Below are positions 14,977 to 52,781 of a DNA stretch of 64,000 bases, piece by piece. The translations under genes and the position numbers were made by a program. How positions within the stretch are numbered: the stretch's first letter is position 1; the number at the start of each line of letters is the position of its first letter. The notes under the pieces were generated by a model. The model did no database searches, had not been told where the DNA came from, and saw only the letters and a list, made by a program, of their open reading frames with translations. This DNA comes from Yersinia proxima (GTDB lineage Bacteria > Pseudomonadota > Gammaproteobacteria > Enterobacterales > Enterobacteriaceae), in contig NZ_CABHYG010000022.1 of NCBI RefSeq assembly GCF_902170785.1, positions 1-64,000 on the forward strand. Reading direction: 5' to 3'.

Positions 14977-15411
14977 CTAACTACCCTCATCCGTATGACA
15001 AAACCAACGACTTAATTCTGCCTGCTGCTTCGGTTGTATTCTCAGGGTAAATGTAAACTCTGTGCACTCCCCATCAATTCGCTTTATAAACTGACGCTGT
15101 TGCCAGTGAGGTTTGATTCCAGAGATATGCGCCTTAGCTGGCTTATCACCACCACTGTCAATATGTTGATTAAGCAAAGACCACGCCTGACGTTGCTGCC
15201 ATAAAGAAGAAAAACCCTGCAAAAGTACCTGATGGTATTGCAGCAATCCCAGCAGCGAGACTGAGAAAAAAAGGGCTGCAATCAAAGCCTCTGGCAGGCT
15301 AAATCCCTGTTGAAAATGGAACTTCCTACTTCCTTCTATATACTGTAGCGAGTCACGATACTTAACTAAATACAAAATTTCACATCCTTTTCTGGGCAAA
15401 AATCCAACCAT
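14977..15411 (-). CDS. ppdC: Prepilin-peptidase-dependent protein C
   Basis: Minor pseudopilin-like membrane protein. The class III prepilin signal QQG|FSLPEAL is followed by a hydrophobic helix; cleavage is expected between Gly and Phe, with Glu at +5. It is the last gene of the ppdA-ppdB-ygdB-ppdC cluster and overlaps ygdB by 46 bp if the ATG at 15411 is used. That start gives an unusually long leader of about 36 residues and lacks a clear ribosome site. A TTG at 15375, behind AAGGA, is an alternative. Function is not established; homologues are thought to prime type IV pilus-like fibre assembly. Confidence 0.85.
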   Translation of the reverse strand: MVGFLPRKGCEILYLVKYRDSLQYIEGSRKFHFQQGFSLPEALIAALFFSVSLLGLLQYHQVLLQGFSSLWQQRQAWSLLNQHIDSGGDKPAKAHISGIKPHWQQRQFIKRIDGECTEFTFTLRIQPKQQAELSRWFCHTDEGS

Positions 15412-15833
15412 CCATGAGCCACGTTCACTAACCGATATCGTCCTCTATTTCCTTGTTCTAAAATCAGTTTAGTTCGTTGGTAGAGCATCAAGGGCGGTTG
15501 AGATCCGAAAGACTTACTCTCTCCACGCAGGATAAAAAAACCAGCCAGCGATGACGGTCTAATACAGGCTTTTAAGCCATATTGTGGATGTTCATTGCAA
15601 TGCCATACTGCCCCTATCTGCCACGGTAAGCTGAATGACCAAATCTGGTTCGCCCCCCAATTCAATGATGATGCCGCCTGATTAAAGGCACGCAAGTGGT
15701 GCTGTTCCTCTGCAGTAATTTTCTGAATATTATCCAATTGTCGATGTAAGGCTGACAACAGAAATAAGCCAAGCGCAAAAAGGGTAGCGATGGCTGCCAA
15801 AGTACTCGTCCCCCGCTGTTGCTCCAGCCTCAT
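15366..15833 (-). CDS. ygdB: YgdB-like pseudopilin (DUF2509)
   Basis: A 155-residue protein with a short positively charged leader ending QQRG, then a hydrophobic helix (TSTLAAIATLFALGLFLL) lacking Glu at +5. That pattern is typical of GspK/PilX-like minor pseudopilins that cap the fibre tip. It overlaps ppdB by 4 bp (ATGA type). The position between ppdB and ppdC matches E. coli ygdB, and this carries the name more than sequence does. Confidence 0.85.
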   Translation of the reverse strand: MRLEQQRGTSTLAAIATLFALGLFLLSALHRQLDNIQKITAEEQHHLRAFNQAASSLNWGANQIWSFSLPWQIGAVWHCNEHPQYGLKACIRPSSLAGFFILRGESKSFGSQPPLMLYQRTKLILEQGNRGRYRLVNVAHGWLDFCPEKDVKFCI

Positions 15834-16456
15834 AAATTATTCCCACGAATGGTATAAGTCAGTTGACGGTGTATTGCCGGATTATCTTTTTTTTGTCCTG
15901 CTAATTGCACGCGATAAACCTGTTCAGTGGTGTGCTGCGGCAATCGGTTAACTGAAAAATGCATGATGGCGATCTCTTGTGGATCGAACAGCTTTTCCCA
16001 ACCGTTGCCAGAACAATTCAGTGCTCCACGCTGGCCTTCCAATGCTTTATTACGCAGGCGATAACCAAAATATTCGGACTCCTGATGTTTCTCTCCTTCC
16101 CACCGGCCATTGCGGTTGAGATCATATGCAACAATCAAGCAAGAGTTTGCGGCCTCTCCTTGATATTGCCGTGTAGTTATGGCCTTTCCCTGGCACTCCC
16201 CGTGACAAAATCCCGCCCGCCGAAGATCCTTTTCCAGTGCGGCCATAATTTGGCTTAGCACCAGTTCCAGATGATAATGCTGCTGCAATATTGATATTTG
16301 CTTGTGTAATTGGGGGAAAACTTGTGTGGCGGCCATAACAATCATGCTGCCAACACTCAGTGCCAGCATCATTTCTGGCAGAGTAAAACCAGCCCTATAT
16401 TTCTGCGAGAAATGATCAGGTACAGGGGCATCCATCTCCTTTACTATTTCTTGCAT
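15830..16456 (-). CDS. ppdB: Prepilin-peptidase-dependent protein B
   Basis: Minor pseudopilin, GspJ/PilW-like, 208 residues. The cleavage motif YRAG|FTLPEMMLALSVGS gives a +5 Glu and a hydrophobic helix. It overlaps ppdA at the 5' end (13 bp) and ygdB at the 3' end, so the four genes form one tightly packed transcription unit. Dependent for maturation on a prepilin peptidase encoded outside the window. Confidence 0.88.
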   Translation of the reverse strand: MQEIVKEMDAPVPDHFSQKYRAGFTLPEMMLALSVGSMIVMAATQVFPQLHKQISILQQHYHLELVLSQIMAALEKDLRRAGFCHGECQGKAITTRQYQGEAANSCLIVAYDLNRNGRWEGEKHQESEYFGYRLRNKALEGQRGALNCSGNGWEKLFDPQEIAIMHFSVNRLPQHTTEQVYRVQLAGQKKDNPAIHRQLTYTIRGNNL

Positions 16457-16980
16457 AAATTAATCCCAGCTATTGATTTTCCCTCACCACATAGCCGGAT
16501 TCGCCCACGACTAGAGATAATTAGTCTGATACGTCCAGCAGGATTACTGAGCACAATATTTCCTGCCTGCGCCGTGTTTCTGAAGCCATAAAAACCAATG
16601 TCTTTATTTAAAGAAATCGTAATAGAAACATCAGGATAAGGTGGAGTAAATATTTCTCCCTCTAATAAGGAACAATCTACTGTTGGCTTATTACCACTGC
16701 CTAAACACCTCTGTTTGTCATACCGTATCCATAACAGTGTCGTGTTGTTACTGCGATTAGCCTTGGCCTGCAAATGTGTTAAAAAATCAAGTAACTGGCG
16801 AGCACTGTCCGCAAGCCTCTCCCGTTGTCGATAATGGTGCCAACTCTGTGCACCCCATACCGTCATAAGACCAGCTAAGGCAATGACTAATAACAGCTCA
16901 ACAAGGCTGATACCTTTTTGTTTTTTAATAATATTTCCGCTGATAAAGCGCAGTTTATTGAGTCGTAGGTTGGTTTTCAT
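16444..16980 (-). CDS. ppdA: Prepilin-peptidase-dependent protein A
   Basis: Minor pseudopilin, GspH-like, 178 residues. The signal KQKG|ISLVELLLVIALAGL has Glu at +5. First gene of the ppd cluster, downstream of thyA as in E. coli. It could in principle contribute a GspH-type minor pseudopilin to other fibre systems in the cell, but nothing in the sequence shows this. The leader before the Gly is about 24 residues; no better internal ATG is visible. Confidence 0.88.
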   Translation of the reverse strand: MKTNLRLNKLRFISGNIIKKQKGISLVELLLVIALAGLMTVWGAQSWHHYRQRERLADSARQLLDFLTHLQAKANRSNNTTLLWIRYDKQRCLGSGNKPTVDCSLLEGEIFTPPYPDVSITISLNKDIGFYGFRNTAQAGNIVLSNPAGRIRLIISSRGRIRLCGEGKSIAGINLCKK

Positions 16981-41171: not shown

Positions 41172-41642
41172 TCAAATACGTGTTAATAATCGCAAGTTGT
41201 TAACAGGGTGCCCCTGAGATTGCTCCATCAAAATAGTATTTTCATTCAGCTGATAAAATATAGGATAACTTACCGCGTAAGGTGTATTTAGAAAATTGTT
41301 CAAATAAAGGTCATACTCTCCCTCCATCGATAGAGATAATACCTTACCGATGAAGATGTTTTTTTTAGAGTCCATCACAGTGAACACTATATTTCTCCTG
41401 GCTTTAATATTGCCATTACTATCATATACATCTGCAGATGCGTTTATTTCCCTTCCAACAATACTGACTCGTGAGTAAACATGATAATTTTTTATGTCAT
41501 GATAAAAATCATAATTACTCTCCCAATATCCTTCCATATTATTCATTGGATGAAAATAAGAGTAGATACTACCAAAGCCATATCCAACTCCCACACCAAA
41601 CAAAACAATTATAAATATTTTTTTTGTCATTTTCTTTTGCAT
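41172..41642 (-). CDS. Small membrane-anchored protein paired with ToxR-like regulator (PsaF/ToxS-like)
   Basis: A 156-residue protein with a short cytoplasmic N-terminus, one hydrophobic segment (residues about 7-29, IFIIVLFGVGVGYGFGSIYSYF) and a periplasmic domain of unknown fold. ATG at 41642 has GGAGG seven bases upstream and lies 16 bp inside the preceding regulator gene, so translation is coupled. The architecture and pairing recall PsaF/MyfF of Yersinia and ToxS of Vibrio, which stabilise or tune their membrane regulators in the periplasm. I infer this from organisation, not from clear sequence identity. AT-rich like the adjacent T2SS operon. Confidence 0.65.
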   Translation of the reverse strand: MQKKMTKKIFIIVLFGVGVGYGFGSIYSYFHPMNNMEGYWESNYDFYHDIKNYHVYSRVSIVGREINASADVYDSNGNIKARRNIVFTVMDSKKNIFIGKVLSLSMEGEYDLYLNNFLNTPYAVSYPIFYQLNENTILMEQSQGHPVNNLRLLTRI

Positions 41643-42286
41643 GTAATCCCTCCACGTTGTAACTTACAGACTGTATACTCACCATTCTTTTGTTTTTTTA
41701 AGAAAATATAAGGCTCTTTATTATAAGAAAATAAAAAACTCTTATTATGCACCTCATCTATATTTATGATGAGAGGTAACTTTTTAATATTGATAATTTT
41801 TATCTGATAATAATCAGATGTAATATTAAAGGAAATCAGTAAACAAACACAGAAAATCATGAATATAGTAAATTTGTTTGCAATATGGTTCCGTTTAGAG
41901 GGTAATTCGGTAGTATAATAAGCAGAATTATCTAATACATCAGTTTGAACCACTGGTGAAATGTCAAAGGAGTCATGGCTGGTAAAATCAGGTTTTACAC
42001 CAAGACAGTACCCTTTTCTGGGAATTGTAATAACCAACTCATGTTCTTTATCATTCAAAGCATGACGTAAATTGCTAATAGTCTGGGTTAATGTATTATC
42101 AGTAACGTAGGTTTCACTCCATACATTCTTCTCGATATTCTCACGAGAGAGCACATCAGGATAGTGAAAACACAGTAAAGACAAAACCTCGGACTCTTTG
42201 TTTCTTATCTTGATGACACCCCCTCCTTTTTTGAGGGTTCTCTTTAGTGGAGTAAAGATAAAATCTCCAATAATTATGTCACTCAT
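41627..42286 (-). CDS. Membrane-anchored winged-helix regulator (ToxR/CadC/PsaE-like)
   Basis: Residues about 5-100 form an OmpR/PhoB-type winged helix (RNKESEVLSLLCFHYPDVLSRE, then TVTQTISNLRHALND-like NTLTQTISNLRHAL and RKGYCL). A linker leads to one membrane helix (FTIFMIFCVCLLISFNI) and a short periplasmic tail of about 55 residues with two Cys near the end (VCKLQRGGITC), which could form a disulfide. No receiver domain. The ATG at 42286 is preferred; the frame opens with GTG at 42298. Domain order fits ToxR-type one-component membrane regulators such as PsaE/MyfE. Likely targets are nearby T2SS genes or distant fimbrial genes; unproven. Confidence 0.8.
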   Translation of the reverse strand: MSDIIIGDFIFTPLKRTLKKGGGVIKIRNKESEVLSLLCFHYPDVLSRENIEKNVWSETYVTDNTLTQTISNLRHALNDKEHELVITIPRKGYCLGVKPDFTSHDSFDISPVVQTDVLDNSAYYTTELPSKRNHIANKFTIFMIFCVCLLISFNITSDYYQIKIINIKKLPLIINIDEVHNKSFLFSYNKEPYIFLKKQKNGEYTVCKLQRGGITCKRK

Positions 42287-43050
42287 CACATTTCTCACAC
42301 TTAAAATTAAATTTTAAAACCAACAAAAACAATATCATTAGTGTCTTATTATAAGATCATAAAAAAAGACAAAAACAATAACTTCAAATGAAAAACAACA
42401 ATCACGGTCAAACTAATGATAAACATGAAAGTCTATCAAAAACACGTCAGTAAATAATAAAAACACATCACTGACATGGAGTTATAAGATACAATTTATA
42501 ATGAAAAAAACATTCCACATCTGCTAAATAAATACATTGACTCAATGAAATATACTTGAGGCATAATTTTGAACACTTACTAACAATAAGAAACTCAACA
42601 ATCCCAAAAGAAGCCTCTACTAACATGACAAAAGCTAATAATTAAGTTCAATAGAATCCAGCCGAAATCAATAGCAGATTAAAAAAACCAAATCATCACC
42701 CAGAAAAAAGTGACCCTAGTTAAATAGCGCACAATACAACAGCTATATATCGCAACTTATGACATTGCTATATAGCTTGCGGTATTAATCATCTTAATAT
42801 AAACATATCATATTTATATGATATGGAGCTAAGGAAATTCTGGTGAATTTATTTTCATGACACATAGATTAAAAACATTTTTATAAGTACGAACTCCATT
42901 ATCATTTAATGGTATTTATAGATATAATATCAAAAAACATAATTTTTAGATAAAAATAACAACATTTAAAAACTCCAGACAAATAACCCAACAACAATAT
43001 AAAAATAACCTCAGCTAAAAAACACATCGAACGTGATGATATTTAATACC
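42287..43050. other. AT-rich intergenic gap with a dyad hairpin
   Basis: About 750 bases without a credible gene between gspM and the membrane regulator, very AT-rich (for example 8 G/C in 42901-42960). At 42741-42777 there is a dyad: AGCTATATA pairs with TATATAGCT and the inner GCAA pairs with TTGC around a short loop. No T-run follows, so a protein-binding site is as likely as a transcript end. The regulator gene promoter should lie near 42300-42400. AT-rich composition makes it a candidate H-NS target. Confidence 0.5.
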
Positions 43051-43527
43051 TTAAGATAATCCACCAAGAATAGTGAAATAACAGCTCACATTACCATTGA
43101 CTTTATCAAAAGTAATATTTATCGTGCTAATCTCCATGCGTTCATCTTGTATCAATAAGTAAATCGCATCAATAAGTTTTGAAAATTTTATACTTTCAAC
43201 TTTTACTGAAGTATAGCCTGGCGATGAATATACAATTTCAAATGAGGTCAAGTTTTCAATAAACAATGCAGACAATATATTATTAATATTTTCATTGGAA
43301 TGCTTATCAACATTAGAGTTAGTAATAGCTGACAACTTTAATCTACTAGCAAGAGATGAATAATTCATAAGTTTACTATGGTATAAATTATATTTTTTTT
43401 GTAGATTTTCGTTGTCTAATGAAGCTATTGTAATAATAGAAACAAAAAGTAATGTTATTATAACTGTCAAAACCACCACTACCATACTTCTACATGAATA
43501 AATGGATATTTTGCTATAATTCATCAC
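43051..43527 (-). CDS. gspM: T2SS inner-membrane platform protein GspM
   Basis: A 158-residue bitopic protein: short cytoplasmic N-terminus, one membrane helix (VVVVLTVIITLLFVSIITIA) and a periplasmic ferredoxin-like region. Identity is weak by eye; the call rests on size, topology and being last in gspC-M order directly after gspL, with a 4-bp ATGA overlap. GspM binds GspL and GspE at the platform. It is the final gene of the operon. Confidence 0.8.
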   Translation of the reverse strand: MMNYSKISIYSCRSMVVVVLTVIITLLFVSIITIASLDNENLQKKYNLYHSKLMNYSSLASRLKLSAITNSNVDKHSNENINNILSALFIENLTSFEIVYSSPGYTSVKVESIKFSKLIDAIYLLIQDERMEISTINITFDKVNGNVSCYFTILGGLS

Positions 43528-44693
43528 TTAAACTCAAATATAATTTCGCAGGTGTCATTGTCATTAAATACTTTGGTGATATTTAATCTCTCATCTTGCT
43601 CATGTGGATCTTTTAGCTCCCAAACCACATCTTCGTCATCATCTATATTGAAACTAATTTTGTGTGCATTATTGTCGAAACTAATACTATTGATACTAAT
43701 GTCTGCATCACCAAGAACCTCGCTTGATTTATGTAATAAATCTATAAAATCAGAATATATATCTTCATAATCATGGTCAGCGATAACACTATTATTTTTA
43801 TAATTCAATACCAGTGGATATTTAACATGAAAATCTGATAGAAGTATATTTATATCATGTATATCTTTTAAGATATTATTTCTATAAAAATAAGAATTAG
43901 AGTAAATCACAACAAATAATAACAGACACGAAAAAATAATCATAAGATATAAACTATTATTAACAACTACTTTTCTATGCTGATAATACTGCCCACTGAG
44001 TAAATTAGTATTATTATTTTCAATATTATTATCCATAATATTTAGTGCTTCACAAAAGCTCGTAACTTCCGAAGTTGGCTCTTGGCTTTTATTAGGAATC
44101 AGTAAGTTTTCACGAAATGGTAATGTTGTTGATAAATATAATTTTTCAAATATACATCTATCTAATAAAAATCCAGAAACCCCACTATCTCTGATTAACC
44201 ATTCATTATCCAGTTTGACTGTAAACCATTTATTCTCCAAAAATGGTAATGTAAGGACATCAGGAATCATTACAGTAGCAGATATACCGATTTCAGTTAA
44301 CCACCCTAACCAAAGATTCATTAAGTCACGTTCAACCACCATTACATGACAAAATTCTCTACTCGATTTCAAAATCACAACATGATAATTTTCTATATCC
44401 CCAACAATTAAACTTTCAATAGAAAAAAGTAAGAACCTTCTATTCTTTAAATATTTTTTATTTTTTATTTTAATTGTCCTGAAAATCACAACTCTAGATG
44501 TTACTAATATCTTCACTTCGTCATTAAAATAAAAAGAAATGTCTTTTAATTCTGTATAATTATTGAGTCTACCATATTTGCAATCCTTTCCAGATTCCGT
44601 TTTTACATACCAATAAACAGGGTCACTAGCACAAGCTCCAAGTCTAATAACCAGTATAGTTTTAGATGAAGTTTCACTATTAATATTACTCAC
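43524..44693 (-). CDS. gspL: T2SS platform protein GspL
   Basis: GspL anchors the ATPase GspE to the membrane. The cytoplasmic actin-like domain is residues about 1-235, a membrane helix follows (YLMIIFSCLLLFVVIYSN) and then a periplasmic ferredoxin-like domain. The frame opens at 44735, but GTG at 44693 is chosen: GGAGG lies ten bases upstream and it overlaps the gspK stop by only eight bases. This gives 389 residues, near the family norm. Sequence is diverged from well-studied GspL proteins and very rich in Asn, Asp and Ile, reflecting the AT-rich DNA. Confidence 0.82.
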   Translation of the reverse strand: MSNINSETSSKTILVIRLGACASDPVYWYVKTESGKDCKYGRLNNYTELKDISFYFNDEVKILVTSRVVIFRTIKIKNKKYLKNRRFLLFSIESLIVGDIENYHVVILKSSREFCHVMVVERDLMNLWLGWLTEIGISATVMIPDVLTLPFLENKWFTVKLDNEWLIRDSGVSGFLLDRCIFEKLYLSTTLPFRENLLIPNKSQEPTSEVTSFCEALNIMDNNIENNNTNLLSGQYYQHRKVVVNNSLYLMIIFSCLLLFVVIYSNSYFYRNNILKDIHDINILLSDFHVKYPLVLNYKNNSVIADHDYEDIYSDFIDLLHKSSEVLGDADISINSISFDNNAHKISFNIDDDEDVVWELKDPHEQDERLNITKVFNDNDTCEIIFEFK

Positions 44694-45636
44694 TAAAATT
44701 GAACCTCCGTCGCACCACAGTAGCGCCCTTATCATTTACATAAAAAGTACTCATCAACTGATAATTCCCTTTATCCTGATACAGTTTAAAAATAGATGAA
44801 AAATAATATTTATCATGAGAAAACTTAAGTGTTAAATTATTTTTAAACCCATCTAATTTGTCATTATCAATCGTTGTATTTTCTGTTATAAATTCAAAAA
44901 AAGATTCGACCGACGCCCAACCTTCATCAGGTTTAGATGAGATTATCTTCGCAATATTATCTTCACTAATTATATTTATAAAAATAGCTTGTAGCAATTT
45001 ACCATGTTTAGGCTCAAGCATGTTAATATTGATTAGTAGTACACCGTCATTCCTATGGCAAATGAATGGAGTTATTTTAAATAAATCATCGCCACTTAAT
45101 TTAATAATGTAATCAGACAAATAACTAATAGCCAATATATCTTCTTCACCAGGAACTAAATAATCTTTAATGCTATCAATATAATCATTTTCAAAACCAA
45201 GTTTAGAATAAAACCCAAAATACATCATTCTCTCGTTGAATTCTTTAGACGTGGTATTATTAAGCCGTAAAATATACCAAAACACAATCCATGGGTAAAT
45301 CGTTCCATTTCCATTGACAGCATTTAGATTAAAACAGTTTGTACTATCAATTAATCTGTAATTAACCTCTGCATCATTCACTTTAATAACATCAGATAAA
45401 ATCAATAGTTCTAATGAGATATTGTTAAAATGCATTCCCTTTGCAATTAATTGGTTAAATGCTTCCAAAAAAAAACCTTCGGAAGCGAGTAATACCTGTT
45501 TCTCAAATTGTTTATTTTTATTATTCTCCACTATATAATATATATCATGTAGATCACGATATGTTAAAGAAACTATTGCACTCATAAATAAAATAGCACA
45601 TAAAACGAGCAATAACGCAAGTCCTTGTTGCATCAT
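44686..45636 (-). CDS. gspK: T2SS minor pseudopilin GspK
   Basis: Tip pseudopilin of 316 residues. The prepilin signal is very short, MMQQG|LALLLVLCAILFM, and lacks Glu at +5, which is the hallmark of GspK. The large globular domain (FNLNAVNG motif after the N-terminal helix) fits the GspK alpha-domain, here lacking the longer insert; the family is usually about 310-330 residues. The start overlaps the gspJ stop by 4 bp. GspK with GspI and GspJ forms the cap of the pseudopilus. Confidence 0.88.
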   Translation of the reverse strand: MMQQGLALLLVLCAILFMSAIVSLTYRDLHDIYYIVENNKNKQFEKQVLLASEGFFLEAFNQLIAKGMHFNNISLELLILSDVIKVNDAEVNYRLIDSTNCFNLNAVNGNGTIYPWIVFWYILRLNNTTSKEFNERMMYFGFYSKLGFENDYIDSIKDYLVPGEEDILAISYLSDYIIKLSGDDLFKITPFICHRNDGVLLININMLEPKHGKLLQAIFINIISEDNIAKIISSKPDEGWASVESFFEFITENTTIDNDKLDGFKNNLTLKFSHDKYYFSSIFKLYQDKGNYQLMSTFYVNDKGATVVRRRFNFSE

Positions 45637-46247
45637 CTGTTCATCTCTGGTTGAAAATTTTCATTTAATAGAAGGATTATTTTTCTTATAGTTCCTGTAT
45701 TTTCCAGTTTAATAATTATCTCAATTCCTTGAGGTAGAATGGCAGACTCATTCCATTGCGTTAACCACTTTCCTTTATAATACACACGAATTACAAACGC
45801 CGTTACACCATCCAGGATTTTAGACACTTTAAGCTCATCACTACTTAAATCATATAATAACTTTTCTAACCTACCATTCTTTAGCCGATATCCAATGGGC
45901 ATTGGCTGAATGTGATAAGATATGCCACTATGAATATCACATAAAAAATAAATTCCATAATCATCACTCTTTAATAAAAACTTACCGACCTGTAGACCAT
46001 TATGATGCTGGCTATTTTTTTGTATTTTAGGAAAAACTACTGTATGTGAAACATGATCTTCAATCATATTTATAGCTGTTTGTAATTTATTTATTTCCCT
46101 TAACTTTTTATTTATAACACTGTTTCCTTTAACCGTAGCGGTAATAGCTTGATAAACAGTTAAACTTATCAAAGTGAAGATAATAATTGATAACAATACC
46201 TCTAAGAGTGTAAATCCTTGTGCGAGATTTTTATTCATTAATAACAT
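45633..46247 (-). CDS. gspJ: T2SS minor pseudopilin GspJ
   Basis: Signal LAQG|FTLLEVLLSIIIFTLIS has Glu at +5. The ATG at 46247 (AAGGA five bases upstream) is preferred over the TTG that opens the frame at 46259; it overlaps the gspI stop by 17 bp. The 204-residue length and the WLTQWNESAILPQGIEI ending match GspJ. It would sit between GspI and GspK in the tip complex. Confidence 0.9.
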   Translation of the reverse strand: MLLMNKNLAQGFTLLEVLLSIIIFTLISLTVYQAITATVKGNSVINKKLREINKLQTAINMIEDHVSHTVVFPKIQKNSQHHNGLQVGKFLLKSDDYGIYFLCDIHSGISYHIQPMPIGYRLKNGRLEKLLYDLSSDELKVSKILDGVTAFVIRVYYKGKWLTQWNESAILPQGIEIIIKLENTGTIRKIILLLNENFQPEMNR

Positions 46248-46620
46248 GATATCCTTCAAGGATAAATTCTGGATGCAGGCTACTTTTGTTTCTACGGACT
46301 TCGACAGTAATAATATCTATTGTATTATTTTTTTTCTCTTTTGATTGCCAATACCATTTTTTATTAAGCACTACATAACTTCCTGTTAACCAGTCTTCAG
46401 TTTGCACAGTTTTTAACAATTTAATTTCTGCCAAAACATTCTCTGCAACCCAAGATGCTATAATTTTATCTTCAAAATCTTTAACTCTGGTTAATTGCAC
46501 ACTAGTAGTAGCCATAACTCCTATACCAATAATAGAAAAAATCAGCATCGAGAGCATAGACTCTAGTAAAGTAAAACCTAGCTTATACTTCAGAGATATA
46601 TCCTTTTTACTGATATACAT
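46231..46620 (-). CDS. gspI: T2SS minor pseudopilin GspI
   Basis: Signal YKLG|FTLLESMLSMLIFSIIG with Glu at +5, then the GspI hallmark SWVAENVLAEIKL, which identifies it rather than GspH. 129 residues, normal for GspI. It follows gspG directly with a 16-bp gap, so the gspH that is normally between gspG and gspI is absent here. The ribosome site is weak (GAGT). Confidence 0.92.
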   Translation of the reverse strand: MYISKKDISLKYKLGFTLLESMLSMLIFSIIGIGVMATTSVQLTRVKDFEDKIIASWVAENVLAEIKLLKTVQTEDWLTGSYVVLNKKWYWQSKEKKNNTIDIITVEVRRNKSSLHPEFILEGYHVINE

Positions 46621-46636
46621 TTAATATTATACTCAA

Positions 46637-47077
46637 TTATTCTTTATTTTCCTCTGAAGACACTGACCAATTTCCGATATCATCCTCAGTTCTTAACTCT
46701 CTATCAGGCCCAGATGAGAGCACATCAATTTCTTTATATTGGCCTGGATTATTAATCTGGTATGCATTTCCCCAGGGATCTTTTGGTAATCTCCTTATAT
46801 ACCCATTTTTAGGATAAATACGAGGGATCGGTAACTCTACTGGTTTGATAACCAATGAATCAATACCTTGAGAATCAGTTGGATAATGACCATTATCTAA
46901 CTTATACATATCCAACGCATTCTCTATAGCTGCAATATCACTTAATGCCTTTTGGTAGTCAGCTCTATTCTTATTAGCCATTATGCTAGGTATCGTTAAA
47001 CTAGCAAGAAGCCCCAAAATAATAATAACCACCATCATTTCTAATAATGTGAAACCATTTGGTTTAATATTATTCAT
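46637..47077 (-). CDS. gspG: T2SS major pseudopilin GspG
   Basis: Main subunit of the periplasmic pseudopilus. Signal KPNG|FTLLEMMVVIIILGLLAS with Glu at +5; conserved DPWGNAYQ and the C-terminal calcium loop GPDRELRTEDDIGNW with its acidic ligands. 146 residues, typical. It needs cleavage and methylation by a prepilin peptidase (GspO/PilD), which is not in this operon. Confidence 0.95.
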   Translation of the reverse strand: MNNIKPNGFTLLEMMVVIIILGLLASLTIPSIMANKNRADYQKALSDIAAIENALDMYKLDNGHYPTDSQGIDSLVIKPVELPIPRIYPKNGYIRRLPKDPWGNAYQINNPGQYKEIDVLSSGPDRELRTEDDIGNWSVSSEENKE

Positions 47078-47095
47078 ATAATTCCTTATAAAAAA

Positions 47096-48304
47096 CTACA
47101 AGACTAAATTATTCATTTCCAACATCGGCTGGAATATAGACAATACGATAAGAAATATAAATACCGCCATAAACAACATTATTATCGGCTCTAGTAATAT
47201 CATAAGAACATTTATCTGATGTAATAATTCCTGTTCTTGAGACTCAGCTATTTTATCTAGAATAAATTCCAATCTTCCACTACGTTCGCCGGATGAAATC
47301 ATATGTAAAACCATAGGAGGAAATATATTACCATTAGCCAATGATGATGAAACACTCCCCCCTTCACTAACTAATCTTGTGGCAACCTCTAATTTAGACT
47401 TAACATATAAATTAGTAACTACTGAACAACTGATCTCCATAGCTTTGATCAAATCAATACCATTAGATGCTAAAATAAACATCATTCTTATATATCGGGA
47501 TATATTAAGGTTAAATATTAACTTACCAAATATCGGTAATTTCAGGCAATAAAAACCAAGAAATATATTTATCTTTTTTATTTTTGACACGCGAAACAGG
47601 ATAGTAAATGAGATAACAAATATCGTAATCATTAAAAAAAAATATTCTTCTAACCAATTACTAGTCAATATAAGAATTCTTGTTGATAACGGTAGTGATT
47701 TATCATAAAGAATGAACTGCTCAATTATGTTTGGGATAACAATCACTAACAATATAATTACAATACATATAGATATTATAATGAGAACAACAGGATATAT
47801 TAATGATTGAATTATCTTGCTTTTTATCTTATATACTTGTTCAATATGTTCTGCAAGATTAGATAAGGCTAAATCTAAATGACCAGATACTTCACCGACG
47901 GCGACCATAGTTCTGTATAGTGAGCTAAAAAAAAATGGGAACTGTGAGAGTGAATCTGATAATGAGTGCCCCTCTTGAACTCTTTTTCTTACCTCGTAAA
48001 TTACATTATTAATATTACGATTTCCATTTTGTTTTTCGATTAACTCCAGCGCTTCATTCAATGGAATTGAGGAACTCACTAAAATAGACATCTGACGGGT
48101 AATTAACACAAGATTCTTATTACTGACAAATCTGTAAATTTTAAACCACCGTGAAAATATGCTCCTTTGCTTCATTTTTATTTTTAGTAAAAACAACTTT
48201 CTTTGATAAAGAGTATTTCTAGCTAAAAACACACTCTCAGCTTCTACACTACCTTTTATTTTCACTCCATCGCGATTGATAGCTAAATAATTAAATACAG
48301 GCAT
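47096..48304 (-). CDS. gspF: T2SS inner-membrane platform protein GspF
   Basis: Polytopic platform protein of 402 residues with two repeated GspF domains and three membrane helices (IIQSLIYPVVLIIISICIVII; the segment near residue 215-235; the C-terminal LEPIIMLFMAVFIFLIVLSI). The conserved FPFFFSSLYRTMVAVGEVSGHLD and MVLHMISSGERSGRLE repeats confirm the family. Its ATG lies 14 bp inside gspE with GAGG upstream. It couples GspE to pseudopilus assembly. Confidence 0.93.
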   Translation of the reverse strand: MPVFNYLAINRDGVKIKGSVEAESVFLARNTLYQRKLFLLKIKMKQRSIFSRWFKIYRFVSNKNLVLITRQMSILVSSSIPLNEALELIEKQNGNRNINNVIYEVRKRVQEGHSLSDSLSQFPFFFSSLYRTMVAVGEVSGHLDLALSNLAEHIEQVYKIKSKIIQSLIYPVVLIIISICIVIILLVIVIPNIIEQFILYDKSLPLSTRILILTSNWLEEYFFLMITIFVISFTILFRVSKIKKINIFLGFYCLKLPIFGKLIFNLNISRYIRMMFILASNGIDLIKAMEISCSVVTNLYVKSKLEVATRLVSEGGSVSSSLANGNIFPPMVLHMISSGERSGRLEFILDKIAESQEQELLHQINVLMILLEPIIMLFMAVFIFLIVLSIFQPMLEMNNLVL

Positions 48305-49796
48305 GCTTATCCTCTAAGTTCACTCTCATGACTTCTTCTATTGATGTGTAACCAGAAATAACTTTATCAATCCCATCTTGCATTATTGTCTTTGATTTCT
48401 TTTCAACCATTTTACTTAAATCAAGTTCACTTTTTCCCTTATAAATACCTTCACGTAAGCTGTTATCTATAATGAGTAGCTCATGTAAAGCAATTCTCCC
48501 ACGATAACCTGTCGTGTTGCATTTATTGCATCCTACGGCGCGATATCCATATCCTTTCATAGAGGTATTCCCGCTAAAAATTAATTCTTTTAGTACACCC
48601 TGTGGGTGAGTATGTTGTTGCCTACATTTGATACATAATCGACGAACCAAACGTTGAGACAAAACAGCTAATAAAGAACTTGATAACATAAATGGTTCAA
48701 CACCCATATCCTTAAGTCTGGTTACTGCACCAATAGCGCTGTTTGCATGTAATGTTGATAAAACCAGATGTCCTGTCAACGACGCTTGTACTGCAATTTG
48801 TGCCGTTTCCATATCTCGTATTTCACCAATAAGAATAACATCAGGGTCCTGCCGGAGTATTGCTCTTAAACTGCGTGAAAAAGTCATATTAATCTTTGGA
48901 TTTACCTGAGTTTGAGAGATTCCTTCGATATCAAATTCAATAGGATCTTCTACAGTCATTATATTTCTTTCGTGGGCATCTATTCCCATCAGAGCAGCAT
49001 AAAGTGTAGTACTTTTACCCGCGCCAGTAGGGCCAACAATTAATATGATTCCATGAGGTTTAAGCACAAGCCCCTTCATAAAATTACAGTTTTTGGATGA
49101 CATTCCTAAAGACTCTAAGTCTAGTTTAAGGCTGTTTTTATCTAATAACCTCATAACAACACGCTCTCCGTGATTTACAGGTAACACCGATACCCGAACA
49201 TCTAAAGCTCTCCCAGCTAGATTCAGCGCTATCCGACCATCTTGTGGAACACGTTTTTCTGCAATATCCAGTTTTGCCATAATCTTAATCCGCGATATTA
49301 ATAATAGCGCGACTCTAGGTTGTAGCTCTAATATATTCTTTAATACACCATCAATACGAAACCTTATAATAATTTTTTCACCAAAAGACTCTATATGTAT
49401 ATCTGATGCTAACTCTTTAATAGCCTCAGCTAAGATTGTATTTATCAGTTTTATTACCGGGGCCTCATTATTACAATCTAGCAAGTCCTCACTAACTGAA
49501 ATTTCACCACTAAACGTGTAAATCGCTATTTCATCACTTATATCACTCATTATTTCATGTGATTGCAATGAACTATTTTGATATACAGCAGCAAGGAAAT
49601 TATCAAACTCATCATCAGTGACAAATTCTAGCCCAATAGGTCGATTACCGACTCTGTTTCCCTCAAGTATTGCATCAAGAGATGCTGAGTATCGACAGAT
49701 GAGTTGGTAACCTTGCTCGACAGGTAATAGAATCACACCATTATCCCGTGCCCAGCCAAACGTTAATGGTAGCAATTCTATTTTATTTCCCGTCAT
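48291..49796 (-). CDS. gspE: T2SS assembly ATPase GspE
   Basis: Cytoplasmic hexameric ATPase that drives pseudopilus growth. Walker A GPTGAGKS (about residues 255-262), Asp box TVEDPIEF, Walker B ILIGEIRDMETA and His box TGHLVLSTLHAN are all present; the zinc tetracysteine motif is CIKC...CNKC. The ATG at 49796 with GGGAGG just upstream is preferred over 49817; it lies within the last codons of gspD (14-bp overlap). 501 residues, normal length. Confidence 0.95.
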   Translation of the reverse strand: MTGNKIELLPLTFGWARDNGVILLPVEQGYQLICRYSASLDAILEGNRVGNRPIGLEFVTDDEFDNFLAAVYQNSSLQSHEIMSDISDEIAIYTFSGEISVSEDLLDCNNEAPVIKLINTILAEAIKELASDIHIESFGEKIIIRFRIDGVLKNILELQPRVALLLISRIKIMAKLDIAEKRVPQDGRIALNLAGRALDVRVSVLPVNHGERVVMRLLDKNSLKLDLESLGMSSKNCNFMKGLVLKPHGIILIVGPTGAGKSTTLYAALMGIDAHERNIMTVEDPIEFDIEGISQTQVNPKINMTFSRSLRAILRQDPDVILIGEIRDMETAQIAVQASLTGHLVLSTLHANSAIGAVTRLKDMGVEPFMLSSSLLAVLSQRLVRRLCIKCRQQHTHPQGVLKELIFSGNTSMKGYGYRAVGCNKCNTTGYRGRIALHELLIIDNSLREGIYKGKSELDLSKMVEKKSKTIMQDGIDKVISGYTSIEEVMRVNLEDKHACI

Positions 49797-51768
49797 ATAG
49801 CCTCCCTGCCGTTTCATAAAAATTAATTACATCACTTCGGAGAGAACTAATAGAGCTATGCTTTATTTTATCTGATAATACTTCAATAGGTTCATTTATA
49901 TCAGAATTAGCTGAATACAAGTTATTATGCTCAATATATTTATCTGTTGTCACTTGGTTATAGTCACTAGCCTCTCTAAGTATTGTTGGCCGGATAAATA
50001 GAATAAGATTACTTTTTTCTATTTTTTCTTTGCTCTGTCTAAACAAACCACCAATCAAAGGTATATCTCCTAAGAATGGTATTTTATTTATTATTTTATT
50101 AAGTTTTTTATCTAATAATCCACCGACGACTACTGTTTCTCCACTTTTTACTAAAACTGCATTATTGACAACCCTTTTGTTAAAAACCGAACCTAAGTTA
50201 TTAGCATTAACATCAGAGCTATCGGCCACACTTGATACCTCTTGTCTGATTTCCAATAAAACCGAATCTCCTTTATTTATCTGTGGTTTAACCTTCAACA
50301 TAACACCAACTGATTGCCGAGAAATCGAGTTATATACCTTGTCTGTTGATGTAGTTTGTGTTGATGTAAGAACGGGAACCTCTTGACCAACATTAAATTC
50401 AGCCTCCATATTATCCAACGTAACAATACTCGGCGTTGCCAGAATATTATTATTTGAATTAGTTGCTAATGCTGTAAAAAGGCCATCCCAATTACCTTTG
50501 TAAAAACCGGCAGTTAACCCAGCCATCACCATTGGTATATTTTTTTTATGATTATTACTTTCTCTTATCTCTTCTGATTTTTGTATAAAATTAGCTCCAC
50601 CATGATATTTATTAGCCCATTGGATACCAAGATTTAATCCTTCTCCATTTTGAGTTTCAACTATAATTGCTTCAACCAAAACTTGTGCACGTCTAACATC
50701 TAATTTATCTATGACTTGTTCTAATTCTTTCATTACTTTGGGATTGGCAGTAATAACTAAAGCATTTGTCTGGTCATATGCTTTGATCGCCGTATTTTTG
50801 CTATTATTCTTTCCTGTCATTTTTTTCAAATTTTCATGATTTACTTCGAAGCTAACACTATTTAATACGTCTAATAATTTAGAGGCTTGAGCATATTTCA
50901 TATAAAAAACCTTAGTATTCCCTTGACTATCTTTCTGCCTATCGAGCCTTTCTATCATTTGAATAGCTTTCTTCCTGGTATGGCGATCACCACTCACTAA
51001 AATAGTATTAGTTCTGTCATCAGCAATGGCGTTTCCTGTAGTAATAGACTCTTGTCTACCGCTATTTACTGGGTTAATTACCTGATTAACTAATTTGATC
51101 ATATCTGCAGCAACGGCATGATTCAGTTGATAGAGTTCAACGCCTATATCTCCAGGTTGGTCTAATATTTTTATAATATTATATAATCTGTTAACTATCG
51201 CAGCACGCCCAGTCATTAATATGACATTTGAAGGGTCATAATGGATGATATTACCTGATTCAGAATTATCATTCAGTTGGCGGAGTAACGGTGCTAGATT
51301 TTTCGCCGAAATATGTTTAAGTTTAAAAACCCGATTAATAAGCTCGTCACCATGGGATTCTTCTGCATTCTTTTGCAAAGCAACGACTAAATTCTTTGCT
51401 CGTTTTACAGGCATGACTTTTAAAATATCATTAGGCATTTCAACTACTGTATAGCCATAAACATCAAGGACATTCAAAAAAAATTGATAATACTTTTCTT
51501 CATCTAATAACTCATAACTGCGGACACTGACTAACCCATGAACTTTAGGATCGATAATTATAGTTTTATTAATGTTTTTACTGACAGTATTGATAAACTC
51601 TTTAATATCTGCGTCCCTAAAAGAGGCAGAAAAGTTTGCACTATATATCTCCATAGGTAAAATGGCAGTAAGAATTATGATTCTGAAAAATATTGTATTG
51701 AAATATTTAAGCATTGAGATTAGATTAACTACTCTTACATACATTAATAATTGATTATAGCTGCGCAT
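49783..51768 (-). CDS. gspD: T2SS outer-membrane secretin GspD
   Basis: Forms the outer-membrane channel. After a signal peptide (hydrophobic IFFRIIILTAILPMEIYSA) come the N0-N3 domains (IKEFINTVSKNINKTIIIDP; repeated N domains with LVVALQK and TNTILVSGDRHTRKK) and the secretin core (VLVEAIIVETQ, VPVLTS, VVVGGLLDKK, PFLGDIPLIGGLFR). A C-terminal tail of about 60 residues may be the pilotin-binding S-domain. ATGs at 51768, 51744 and 51714 are possible; the last gives the most ordinary signal peptide, the first has GGAGG too close. A G8 tract lies in its leader. Confidence 0.94.
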   Translation of the reverse strand: MRSYNQLLMYVRVVNLISMLKYFNTIFFRIIILTAILPMEIYSANFSASFRDADIKEFINTVSKNINKTIIIDPKVHGLVSVRSYELLDEEKYYQFFLNVLDVYGYTVVEMPNDILKVMPVKRAKNLVVALQKNAEESHGDELINRVFKLKHISAKNLAPLLRQLNDNSESGNIIHYDPSNVILMTGRAAIVNRLYNIIKILDQPGDIGVELYQLNHAVAADMIKLVNQVINPVNSGRQESITTGNAIADDRTNTILVSGDRHTRKKAIQMIERLDRQKDSQGNTKVFYMKYAQASKLLDVLNSVSFEVNHENLKKMTGKNNSKNTAIKAYDQTNALVITANPKVMKELEQVIDKLDVRRAQVLVEAIIVETQNGEGLNLGIQWANKYHGGANFIQKSEEIRESNNHKKNIPMVMAGLTAGFYKGNWDGLFTALATNSNNNILATPSIVTLDNMEAEFNVGQEVPVLTSTQTTSTDKVYNSISRQSVGVMLKVKPQINKGDSVLLEIRQEVSSVADSSDVNANNLGSVFNKRVVNNAVLVKSGETVVVGGLLDKKLNKIINKIPFLGDIPLIGGLFRQSKEKIEKSNLILFIRPTILREASDYNQVTTDKYIEHNNLYSANSDINEPIEVLSDKIKHSSISSLRSDVINFYETAGRLYDGK

Positions 51769-51772
51769 CCCT

Positions 51773-51780
51773 CCCCCCCC
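51773..51780. repeat. Homopolymer G8/C8 tract in the gspD leader
   Basis: Eight consecutive C on the plus strand, that is G8 in the transcript, five bases before the first possible gspD ATG at 51768 and inside the 31-bp gspC-gspD gap. The tract is part of GGGGGGGGAGGG. Tracts of this length can slip during replication. Confidence 0.9.
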
Positions 51781-51799
51781 AATTACTTGCGATAATTAT

Positions 51800-52306
51800 T
51801 CATAATATCATTAATGAATAATATGATTTATTTTCACTTATTATAACTTTATCTTTTAAGATTTTAATAATAGTGGAATTATCTATTTTATCACCAATAG
51901 AGTATAGGTTTTGTTTCCCATTCAACTCTAAAATTGCAATAGAGCTAGATTCTTCAGTATACTCAAGCACACCAACTAACTTTATAATTCCAGTATAAGA
52001 TGGGGAGTTAATAATATCAGTTTTATTTTTTAAAATTTTCAAATTATTTTTATCATTAAAATTCTCTTTAAATACACTTCTATTTTTAATTTCATTTATC
52101 ATTTTTAACTTATTGTTTTTATGCCATGCGTTACTTTCTTCATATAATACTGGAATTATCCTTTTTTGTTTTCCTGTTATTATATTGTAGCCAATTATTA
52201 TTTGATAAAAGATGCATATTGTAATAACCCCACCAAGAAGATACACCCTTCTATTAACTAATAATTTATAGGGTGCTATAGATATTCTATTAAGAACAGA
52301 CAACAC
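51800..52306 (-). CDS. gspC: T2SS inner-membrane coupling protein GspC (short)
   Basis: A 168-residue bitopic protein: cytoplasmic N-terminus, one membrane helix (YLLGGVITICIFYQIIIGYN), a linker and a C-terminal HR domain (YTGIIKLVGVLEYTEESSSIAILELNG...YSIGDKI) that contacts the GspD N0 domain. The usual C-terminal PDZ or coiled-coil region is missing; GspC of other systems is about 270-300 residues. No frameshifted PDZ remnant is seen downstream, where gspD follows within 31 bp. Naming rests on the HR domain and first position in gspC-M order. Confidence 0.82.
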   Translation of the reverse strand: MLSVLNRISIAPYKLLVNRRVYLLGGVITICIFYQIIIGYNIITGKQKRIIPVLYEESNAWHKNNKLKMINEIKNRSVFKENFNDKNNLKILKNKTDIINSPSYTGIIKLVGVLEYTEESSSIAILELNGKQNLYSIGDKIDNSTIIKILKDKVIISENKSYYSLMIL

Positions 52307-52364
52307 CCTACCCTCTCAAACCATAATAAATAAAATATAAAAAAGATAGAATAACCGTCTGTAT

Positions 52365-52781
52365 TTAATAGCCAGTAAATCTATCTTTCATCTTATCAGA
52401 TTCCATTGCACTCAATATTCCTGAATCTAACCTTAATCCATATCTGTTTATAGTTTTAACAATCCCATCAGGAATGCCAGCATTCTTCAAATGTACGCGA
52501 AATTTATGTATCAATTGATGATAGTTATTATCTGAAATGCTTTTGTGGTTTTCATACCAAACAACTTTAATAATATCTTGTTTTCTATTCACATCATTAA
52601 ACAAACACATGACCAATCTCTTTTGCTTCTCATTAATATCTATGGTTAATTTTCTAGAGTGGAAATGTATTTTGTTCATACAACAATCCAGTGATATCTC
52701 TTTTTCATAGTCAATCACTCCCTTTCCATTAATATCAATGAACTTACTACCAGAAACAACAGAGACTGTATCAACATACAT
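52365..52781 (-). CDS. Soluble winged-helix regulator at the head of the T2SS operon
   Basis: A 138-residue protein. The C-terminal two-thirds (residues about 35-130) looks like an OmpR/PhoB winged helix (LTIDINEKQKRLVMCLFND, then NNYHQLIHKFRVHLKNAGI and VKTINRYGLRL). There is no receiver domain and no membrane helix. ATG at 52781 has AGGGG eight bases upstream. It precedes gspC by 58 bp on the same strand and probably belongs to the operon, so it is a candidate T2SS regulator. Not recognised as a named protein. Confidence 0.7.
   Translation of the reverse strand: MYVDTVSVVSGSKFIDINGKGVIDYEKEISLDCCMNKIHFHSRKLTIDINEKQKRLVMCLFNDVNRKQDIIKVVWYENHKSISDNNYHQLIHKFRVHLKNAGIPDGIVKTINRYGLRLDSGILSAMESDKMKDRFTGY

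What the first reader, a model, noticed from the sequence alone, without database searches (positions are those of the whole stretch)
43051..52781. Compact, AT-rich type II secretion operon lacking gspH, gspN, gspO and a pilotin gene
Ten gsp genes (C-D-E-F-G-I-J-K-L-M) overlap or nearly touch on one strand. gspG is followed directly by gspI (16-bp gap), so gspH is absent, and no prepilin peptidase or pilotin gene is present, although all pseudopilins have cleavage motifs. The DNA is strikingly AT-rich against core flanks, suggesting horizontal acquisition. The system must borrow a peptidase, and perhaps a GspH-like subunit such as PpdA, from elsewhere, and its cargo is unknown.
Basis: partly seen in the sequence, partly recalled or inferred. 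Interest (0 to 1): 0.72.

Follow-up and report, generated by a model that had tools for sequence, protein, structure and literature searches.

The report
Yersinia secretion operon missing its peptidase
This is the known second type II secretion operon (Yts2) of Yersinia; in this strain its own pilin-cutting enzyme gene has decayed, and the pattern in related species suggests that it may run on spare parts supplied by another, complete secretion system elsewhere in the genome.

Summary
The ten gsp genes are real, open and placed as described. They are the orthologue of Yersinia Yts2, at the same site and equally AT-rich in 17 other genomes of the genus, so not a recent acquisition. Two of the four absences were in print (PMC3521999: gspS missing from all yts2, gspH from several). 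Thirteen of the 18 genomes with Yts2 gspD have gspO after gspM; here that gap holds a decayed gspO relic (42511-43035). The same genome has a complete Yts1 with gspO, gspS and gspH.

Beyond the finding: (1) Yts2 does have a pilotin gene, a divergent PulS/OutS lipoprotein opposite gspO, in 10 of 25 genomes, contrary to that review. (2) It never occurs with Yts1's gspS (13 have only the Yts1 type, 10 only the Yts2 type, 2 neither). (3) All five gspD2 genomes without gspO2 have Yts1 gspO; all eleven without Yts1 gspO keep gspO2. (4) In four genomes, single Yts1 genes outlived Yts1, and Yts2 lacks those there.

Best reading: Yts2 works with peptidase and pilotin supplied by Yts1. Main rival: Yts2 is eroding; four of the five gspO-less loci have further losses in cis. 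No cargo was found.

The parts
41172..41642 (-). toxS-like partner gene (label by position), conserved downstream border of the Yts2 locus
   Evidence: orthologues next to the toxR-like gene in relatives' loci; no Pfam hit
41627..42298 (-). toxR-like winged-helix regulator (label mine)
   Evidence: PF00486 E 4e-16; conserved position
42511..43035 (-). decayed gspO (prepilin peptidase) relic; no open frame
   Evidence: nhmmer with 18 relatives' gspO2 genes: 40.8 bits over 42630-43035, plus a weak second stretch 42511-42614 (0.7 bits); 300 shuffles at most -2.5; 12 frame-breaking indels against 0 in 17 of 18 intact gspO2 genes and 4 in the most divergent
43051..43527 (-). gspM (weakly conserved)
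   Evidence: Pfam T2SSM E 3e-4, below cut-off; position; profile of relatives
43524..44735 (-). gspL
   Evidence: PF05134 E 2e-41
44686..45636 (-). gspK
   Evidence: NF037980 E 4e-15, below cut-off; relatives
45633..46259 (-). gspJ
   Evidence: TIGR01711 over cut-off
46231..46620 (-). gspI
   Evidence: TIGR01707 over cut-off
46637..47077 (-). gspG, major pseudopilin
   Evidence: TIGR01710 over cut-off
47096..48304 (-). gspF
   Evidence: TIGR02120 E 7e-114, below cut-off
48291..49817 (-). gspE ATPase
   Evidence: TIGR02533 just over cut-off
49783..51768 (-). gspD secretin; C-terminal DxxxFY helix as in Yts1 GspD
   Evidence: TIGR02517 over cut-off; C-terminus
51800..52306 (-). gspC (short)
   Evidence: PF11356 E 7e-10 over cut-off; below NCBIfam cut-off
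52365..52781 (-). pypC regulator of yts2
   Evidence: 89-96% identical in 12 relatives' loci, 76-84% in G022, G021, G009 and G017, absent in G011; name by position and PMC3521999
53437..54192 (-). carbonic anhydrase, conserved upstream border in most relatives
   Evidence: PF00484; relatives

Best explanation
The locus is the Yersinia Yts2 type II secretion operon. Its cognate prepilin peptidase gene gspO has decayed in place, and it has no gspH and no gspS. It is most likely still a working machine: its prepseudopilins G, I, J and K are cut by the GspO of the complete Yts1 system on another contig, and its secretin is piloted by the Yts1 GspS. Shown: orthology, the gspO relic, open C-M genes, an intact Yts1 peptidase and pilotin, and the genus-wide mutual exclusion of the two pilotins. 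Inferred: that cross-supply really happens and that Yts2 secretes anything.
For: Orthology by site and tree. gspO relic. The ten gsp ORFs over about 9.3 kb stayed open while about 0.5 kb of gspO gained 12 frame-breaking indels; dN/dS of C-M against G007 is 0.07-0.49, rough because dS is high. Yts1 gspO is intact, over two Pfam cut-offs, dN/dS 0.08-0.09. 5 of 5 gspD2 genomes lacking gspO2 have gspO1; 11 of 11 gspD2 genomes lacking gspO1 keep gspO2 (Fisher p 0.0025; over all 25 genomes p 0.021). gspS1 and gspS2 never co-occur in 25 genomes (p 2e-5; 18 with gspD2, p 4e-4; tests blind to descent). Orphan gspO1-gspS1 in G009/G017, where Yts2 lacks both, and orphan gspS1 in G002/G005, where Yts2 keeps gspO but lacks gspS, show dN/dS 0.15-0.17, like the gsp genes of the same genomes and far above housekeeping genes. 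A DxxxFY helix ends 18 of 18 GspD2 and 3 of 3 GspD1 aligned. Many prepilin peptidases are promiscuous (PMC4471445, passage).
Against: Four of the five gspO2-less loci have further losses in cis: gspC broken in G001; gspK split and gspM not found in G021; L and M absent in G009/G017. Against that, 2 of the 13 loci with gspO2 are damaged (G008, G011; profile check for these two, ORF lengths for the other eleven). G006 keeps an open Yts2 with no GspS of either kind. G014-G016 keep an orphan gspO2 although their Yts1 has its own gspO, so an orphan need not serve the other T2SS. The window's terminal branch is longer than that of its relative G007 for nine of the ten gsp genes. Fisher tests ignore shared descent. 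The operon block may have been swapped in by recombination, which weakens the decay-clock argument.
Confidence: 0.57

Rival explanations
1. Yts2 is being dismantled in this species: gspO (and gspS, gspH) were lost because the system is no longer used, and the remaining ten ORFs are intact only because too little time has passed.
For: No gspD2 in G004, G014, G015, G016 and G023 (G003 and G024 also lack it, but their contigs end there); single genes broken or missing in G001, G008, G011, G021. No secreted protein and no natural inducing condition is known for Yts2 (PMC3521999). The window's gsp branches are longer than those of G007 in nine of ten genes.
Against: The relic is heavily decayed (12 frame-breaking indels in about 0.5 kb), yet about 9.3 kb of gsp ORFs are open; dN/dS is 0.07-0.49. 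If the operon block was swapped in after gspO died, this clock argument weakens.
Confidence: 0.31
2. Yts2 works, but another peptidase than the Yts1 GspO serves it, for example the short A24 peptidase (144-aa open frame, C10:301387-301683).
For: That peptidase exists in the genome, and short A24 peptidases of 143-188 aa open frame occur in 23 of 25 genomes.
Against: The 11 gspD2 genomes without gspO1 all have the short peptidase and yet all keep gspO2, so the short one does not seem to replace it.
Confidence: 0.06
3. The locus is a recently acquired, self-standing compact T2SS variant.
For: Low GC against the flanks; synonymous divergence from G007 is 1.0-2.0 in C-M and 0.78 in pypC against 0.29-0.54 in HxlR, carbonic anhydrase, toxR and toxS, which fits an allele swap by recombination within the genus.
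Against: Same site, same order and same low GC in 17 other genomes of the genus; the tree places it inside Yersinia Yts2.
Confidence: 0.03

Closest known systems
Yts2 of Yersinia (review PMC3521999; abstract and passages seen, not the whole text)
   Same: Same regulator pypC in front, no gspS in cis, gspH missing as in several species, no known cargo
   Different: gspO is a relic here. The passages seen list no species without gspO, and say that gspS is absent in all yts2 clusters, which contradict, also for Y. frederiksenii and Y. rohdei, which the review lists as yts2 carriers.
Yts1-ChiY system of Yersinia (same review)
   Same: Homologous T2SS; in this genome complete, with gspH, gspO, gspS and chiY
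   Different: About 50% GspD identity, GC 0.44-0.49 in the five loci measured, another locus
T2SS served by a peptidase of another pilin system, e.g. PilD/XcpA of Pseudomonas aeruginosa (recalled; promiscuity stated in PMC4471445, passage)
   Same: No gspO in the operon, peptidase in trans
   Different: Here the donor would be a second T2SS, the loss has left a relic, and the pilotin follows the same pattern
PulS/OutS pilotins
   Same: 10 of 10 Yts2-linked lipoproteins pass the Pfam cut-off; the profile finds the PulS and OutS structures
   Different: Only 18-28% identical to Yts1 GspS; not present in the window's own Yts2

Membership tests
Yersinia Yts2 | Site next to pypC with HxlR/carbonic anhydrase on one side and the toxR-toxS pair on the other | tested here: met
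Yersinia Yts2 | GspD/E/F/G phylogeny inside Yts2, apart from Yts1 | tested here: met
   separation from Yts1 at support 100
Yersinia Yts2 | gspO after gspM, as in 13 of the 18 genomes with gspD2 | tested here: not met
   only a relic. Four other loci also lack it, so I treat it as a lost part and not as a defining feature that excludes membership.
Yersinia Yts2 | Transcription controlled by PypC | not testable with these tools
   gene present; control in Y. enterocolitica per PMC3521999
Type II secretion system | Secretin, ATPase, GspF, major pseudopilin and L/M platform present and open | tested here: met
   gspF below its NCBIfam cut-off, gspM weak
Type II secretion system | A prepilin peptidase available in the genome | tested here: met
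   Yts1 gspO, C10:378543-379340
Type II secretion system | Secretes a protein through GspD | not testable with these tools
   no cargo known or found
PulS/OutS pilotin (Yts2-linked gene in relatives) | Pfam PF09691 over cut-off, lipobox cysteine | tested here: met
   10 of 10; cysteine 19 invariant in 10

The most novel reading that the evidence does not exclude
Yts2 across Yersinia is a machine with exchangeable parts: peptidase and pilotin (and, in two species, perhaps GspL-GspM) are supplied by other T2SSs, and when those other systems are deleted, selection keeps just the single genes that Yts2 lacks in cis. The orphan genes (gspO1-gspS1 and gspL-gspM in G009/G017, gspS1 alone in G002/G005) would be parts of Yts2 in trans.
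Probability: 0.42. Interest if true: 0.68.

Novelty: new variant of a known kind. Interest (0 to 1): 0.5.

Why it matters
Cross-supply of peptidase and pilotin would explain why Yts2 looks incomplete in several Yersinia, and the overlooked gene corrects the statement that Yts2 has no pilotin. It also gives a natural genus-wide experiment on which T2SS parts are interchangeable, and on whether orphan gsp genes should be read as debris or as working parts in trans.

Tried and rejected
Acquisition by this strain from outside the genus: rejected, since the locus is at one site across the genus. GspH borrowed from PpdA: ppd-like pilins do exist (window 16328-16926, a weak one at 15244, and C19:127589), but gspH is missing from 13 of 17 relatives' loci, so no replacement is called for; not excluded. 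gspS relic in the window gap: the profile search gave nothing; in relatives' gaps without gspS2 the best match was E 0.086. An 804-810 aa crystallin-like protein inside the Yts2 locus of G018, G001 and G017 as cargo: dropped, because relatives of it occur in all 25 genomes, also in G023, for which no T2SS gspD, no gspL and no full-length gspO was found. Codon test between the window and G007: synonymous sites of C-M are near saturation (dS 1.0-2.0), so dN/dS there is rough. No structure prediction was run. Label sets for the Fisher tests were typed by hand. G003 and G024 show gspO2 and gspS2 at contig ends without gspD or pypC; they count as carriers in the 25-genome tables only. The names recB, recA, alaS, ndh, mfd, toxR, toxS and the names of the other genes compared in G002/G005 are mine, from recall and position, not from profile calls (except PF00486 for the toxR-like gene).
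Full report
What is there. The window lies in a 4.71 Mb genome in 23 contigs, a Yersinia by its relatives. Ten gsp genes, C-D-E-F-G-I-J-K-L-M, lie on the minus strand at 43051-52306 and are open. Profiles name nine of them; C, F and K score below the NCBIfam cut-off, and gspM rests on a weak Pfam match and its place. The finding's end point also takes in a regulator at 52365-52781. GC falls to 0.28-0.36 over the locus.

It is Yts2. A search of 25 genomes of the genus (the window's own and 24 others) found this type of gspD in 18, counting a truncated one in G011. The 17 loci from other genomes share the order pypC, C...M, toxR, toxS with much the same neighbours, with the losses told below; six of them are the same DNA as the six named Yersinia loci. 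In a tree of GspD+E+F+G the window falls among these, apart from Yts1 at support 100. GC of the gsp block is 0.318-0.352 in the 17 loci and 0.44-0.49 in five Yts1 loci. The low GC is thus a property of Yts2 in the genus. The review PMC3521999 (abstract and passages seen) already says that yts2 lacks gspS in all species and gspH in several, that PypC controls it, and that no cargo is known.

gspH. A gspH lies between gspG and gspI in G022, G021, G009 and G017; it is missing in the other 13 loci and in the window. Ten of those 13 genomes have no Yts1 gspD. So gspH looks dispensable rather than borrowed.

gspO. In 13 of the 18 gspD2 genomes a full prepilin peptidase gene follows gspM. In the window this 752-base gap (42299-43050) has no ORF of 60 aa or more, but a DNA profile of 18 relatives' gspO2 genes finds a relic at 42511-43035: 40.8 bits, plus a weak second stretch of 0.7 bits. 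Of 300 dinucleotide shuffles, 148 gave any score, the best -2.5. The main hit carries 14 indels, 12 of them frame-breaking. As a control, each of the 18 intact genes was aligned to a profile of the other 17: 17 of 18 gave no frame-breaking indel, the most divergent (G022) gave 4, and scores were 471-678 bits. The gene has therefore decayed in place.

The rest of the genome. A profile search finds two A24 peptidases in this genome: gspO of a complete Yts1 (C10) and a short form with a 144-aa open frame. The Yts1 locus also has gspH, gspS and chiY. The Yts1 gspO passes both Pfam cut-offs and is conserved against G004 and G007 (dN/dS 0.09 and 0.08).

A pilotin gene in Yts2. Between gspO and toxR, on the opposite strand, 10 of the 25 genomes carry a 119-123 aa lipoprotein related to Yts1 GspS at 18-28% identity. 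All 10 pass the Pfam PulS_OutS cut-off. The lipobox cysteine and two further cysteines are invariant. Profile comparison with Yts1-type GspS gives probability 98.4, and the profile finds solved PulS and OutS structures. Of the six named Yersinia loci, four carry it (Y. frederiksenii, rohdei, pekkanenii, similis) and two do not (aldovae, aleksiciae). This contradicts the review's statement that all yts2 clusters lack gspS; the review lists Y. frederiksenii and Y. rohdei among yts2 carriers. I found no paper that reports this gene in the listings; the library lacks most subscription journals.

Mutual exclusion. Over 25 genomes gspS1 alone occurs in 13, gspS2 alone in 10, both in 0, neither in 2 (G006, G023); Fisher p 2e-5. 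Among the 18 genomes with gspD2, gspO2 is missing in 5 (G000, G001, G009, G017, G021), all with gspO1, and present in 11 of 11 without gspO1 and in 2 of 7 with it; p 0.0025. Over all 25 genomes the gspO table is 5 both, 6 gspO1 only, 13 gspO2 only, 1 neither; p 0.021. A further PulS_OutS paralogue of about 126 aa is in all 25 genomes and is not counted. These tests ignore shared descent. By eye on the RecB tree the gspS1 genomes fall into about five groups, so the number of independent cases is small.

Orphan parts. In G009 and G017 Yts1 is reduced, in the stretches taken, to gspO-gspS, no Yts1 gspD is found in the genome, and Yts2 there lacks O and S in cis. In G002 and G005 only gspS of Yts1 was found, and Yts2 there keeps gspO but lacks gspS. 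Between the two members of each pair these orphans show dN/dS 0.15-0.17; gsp genes of Yts2 in the same pairs show 0.07-0.38, and the housekeeping or other chromosomal genes compared 0.006-0.045. G009 and G017 also lack gspL and gspM at Yts2, apart from a 56-position scrap (E 0.02), but carry an open gspL-gspM pair elsewhere, beside gspK debris in G009 (dN/dS 0.33 and 0.22). That GspL lacks about 30 positions at the start of the T2SSL model, so this last case is weaker. A Y. entomophaga genome paper reports a single T2SS cluster of 11 genes and 35% GC (PMC4885058, passages); those passages do not mention orphans.

How it most likely works. PypC turns on the operon; G, I, J and K are made as precursors and cut by the Yts1 GspO; GspD2 is carried to the outer membrane by the Yts1 GspS, whose binding site would be the last GspD helix, which carries DxxxFY in 18 of 18 GspD2 and 3 of 3 GspD1 aligned (that pilotins bind this region is from PMC6532946, passages). 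The machine then pushes out an unknown cargo. PypC control is published for a relative; the cutting and piloting steps are inferred.

Against it. Four of five gspO2-less loci have other losses in cis, as against 2 of 13 with gspO2. G006 has an open Yts2 and no GspS of either kind. G014-G016 keep an orphan gspO2 beside pypC although Yts1 there has its own gspO. No gspD2 is found in seven genomes, two of them with contigs that end at the locus. The window's gsp genes have longer terminal branches than those of G007 in nine of ten genes, although toxR and toxS do as well.

A complication. Between the window and G007, synonymous divergence is 0.24 in recB and 0.29-0.54 in HxlR, carbonic anhydrase, toxR and toxS, but 0.78 in pypC and 1.0-2.0 in C-M. 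The stretch from the first 200 bases of toxR to the end of the relic is 84% identical to G007, and the matched part of the relic 66%. The RecB and Yts2 trees disagree on the window's neighbour. The operon block, relic included, was probably exchanged by recombination within the genus in one of the two lineages. If the window's block came from a donor, gspO may have died there.

Verdict. The finding is a real but mostly known system. What is new is the gspO relic, the overlooked Yts2 pilotin, and the complementary distribution of peptidase and pilotin genes. I file it as a new variant of a known kind.

Noticed in passing
window 42511-52781 against G007 (L080): Synonymous divergence jumps from 0.29-0.54 in the flanks to 0.78 in pypC and 1.0-2.0 in gspC-M, with one step near the end of the gspO relic: probable allele exchange within the genus.
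   Followed up: partly
L140:7698-9468 and L141:7524-9294: Orphan gspL-gspM pair in G009 and G017, beside gspK debris in G009, far from Yts2: probably remains of a third T2SS.
   Followed up: partly
L098:11567-12406, L099:9708-10547, L100:10271-11113: Yts2 deleted except pypC and gspO in G014, G015 and G016; the lone gspO is conserved (dN/dS 0.15-0.26) although Yts1 there has its own.
   Followed up: partly
L082:6020-6302 (G006): Open Yts2 with gspO2 but no GspS of either kind in the genome; how its secretin gets to the outer membrane is open.
   Followed up: no
L085:3359-5779, L089:4429-6861, L093:11651-14065: A secreted-looking 804-810 aa protein sits inside the Yts2 locus of three genomes; the two scanned have beta/gamma-crystallin repeats and a weak match to an exotoxin A binding domain; relatives of it occur in all 25 genomes.
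   Followed up: partly
L011 (Y. aldovae ATCC 35236): Carries a Yts2 locus (gspC broken, gspO gone), although PMC3521999 says that Y. aldovae lacks the yts2 cluster.
   Followed up: no
window 15244-16980: Pilin-like genes that look like the ppd type (name recalled); further possible clients of the Yts1 GspO.
   Followed up: no
G000:C19:164214-164480: A PulS_OutS paralogue of about 126 aa is found in all 25 genomes, also in G023, where no T2SS gspD was found; its role is unknown here.
   Followed up: no
L087 (G008) and L095 (G011): Yts2 damaged although gspO2 is intact: gspE and gspL split in G008, gspD truncated and gspC missing in G011.
   Followed up: no
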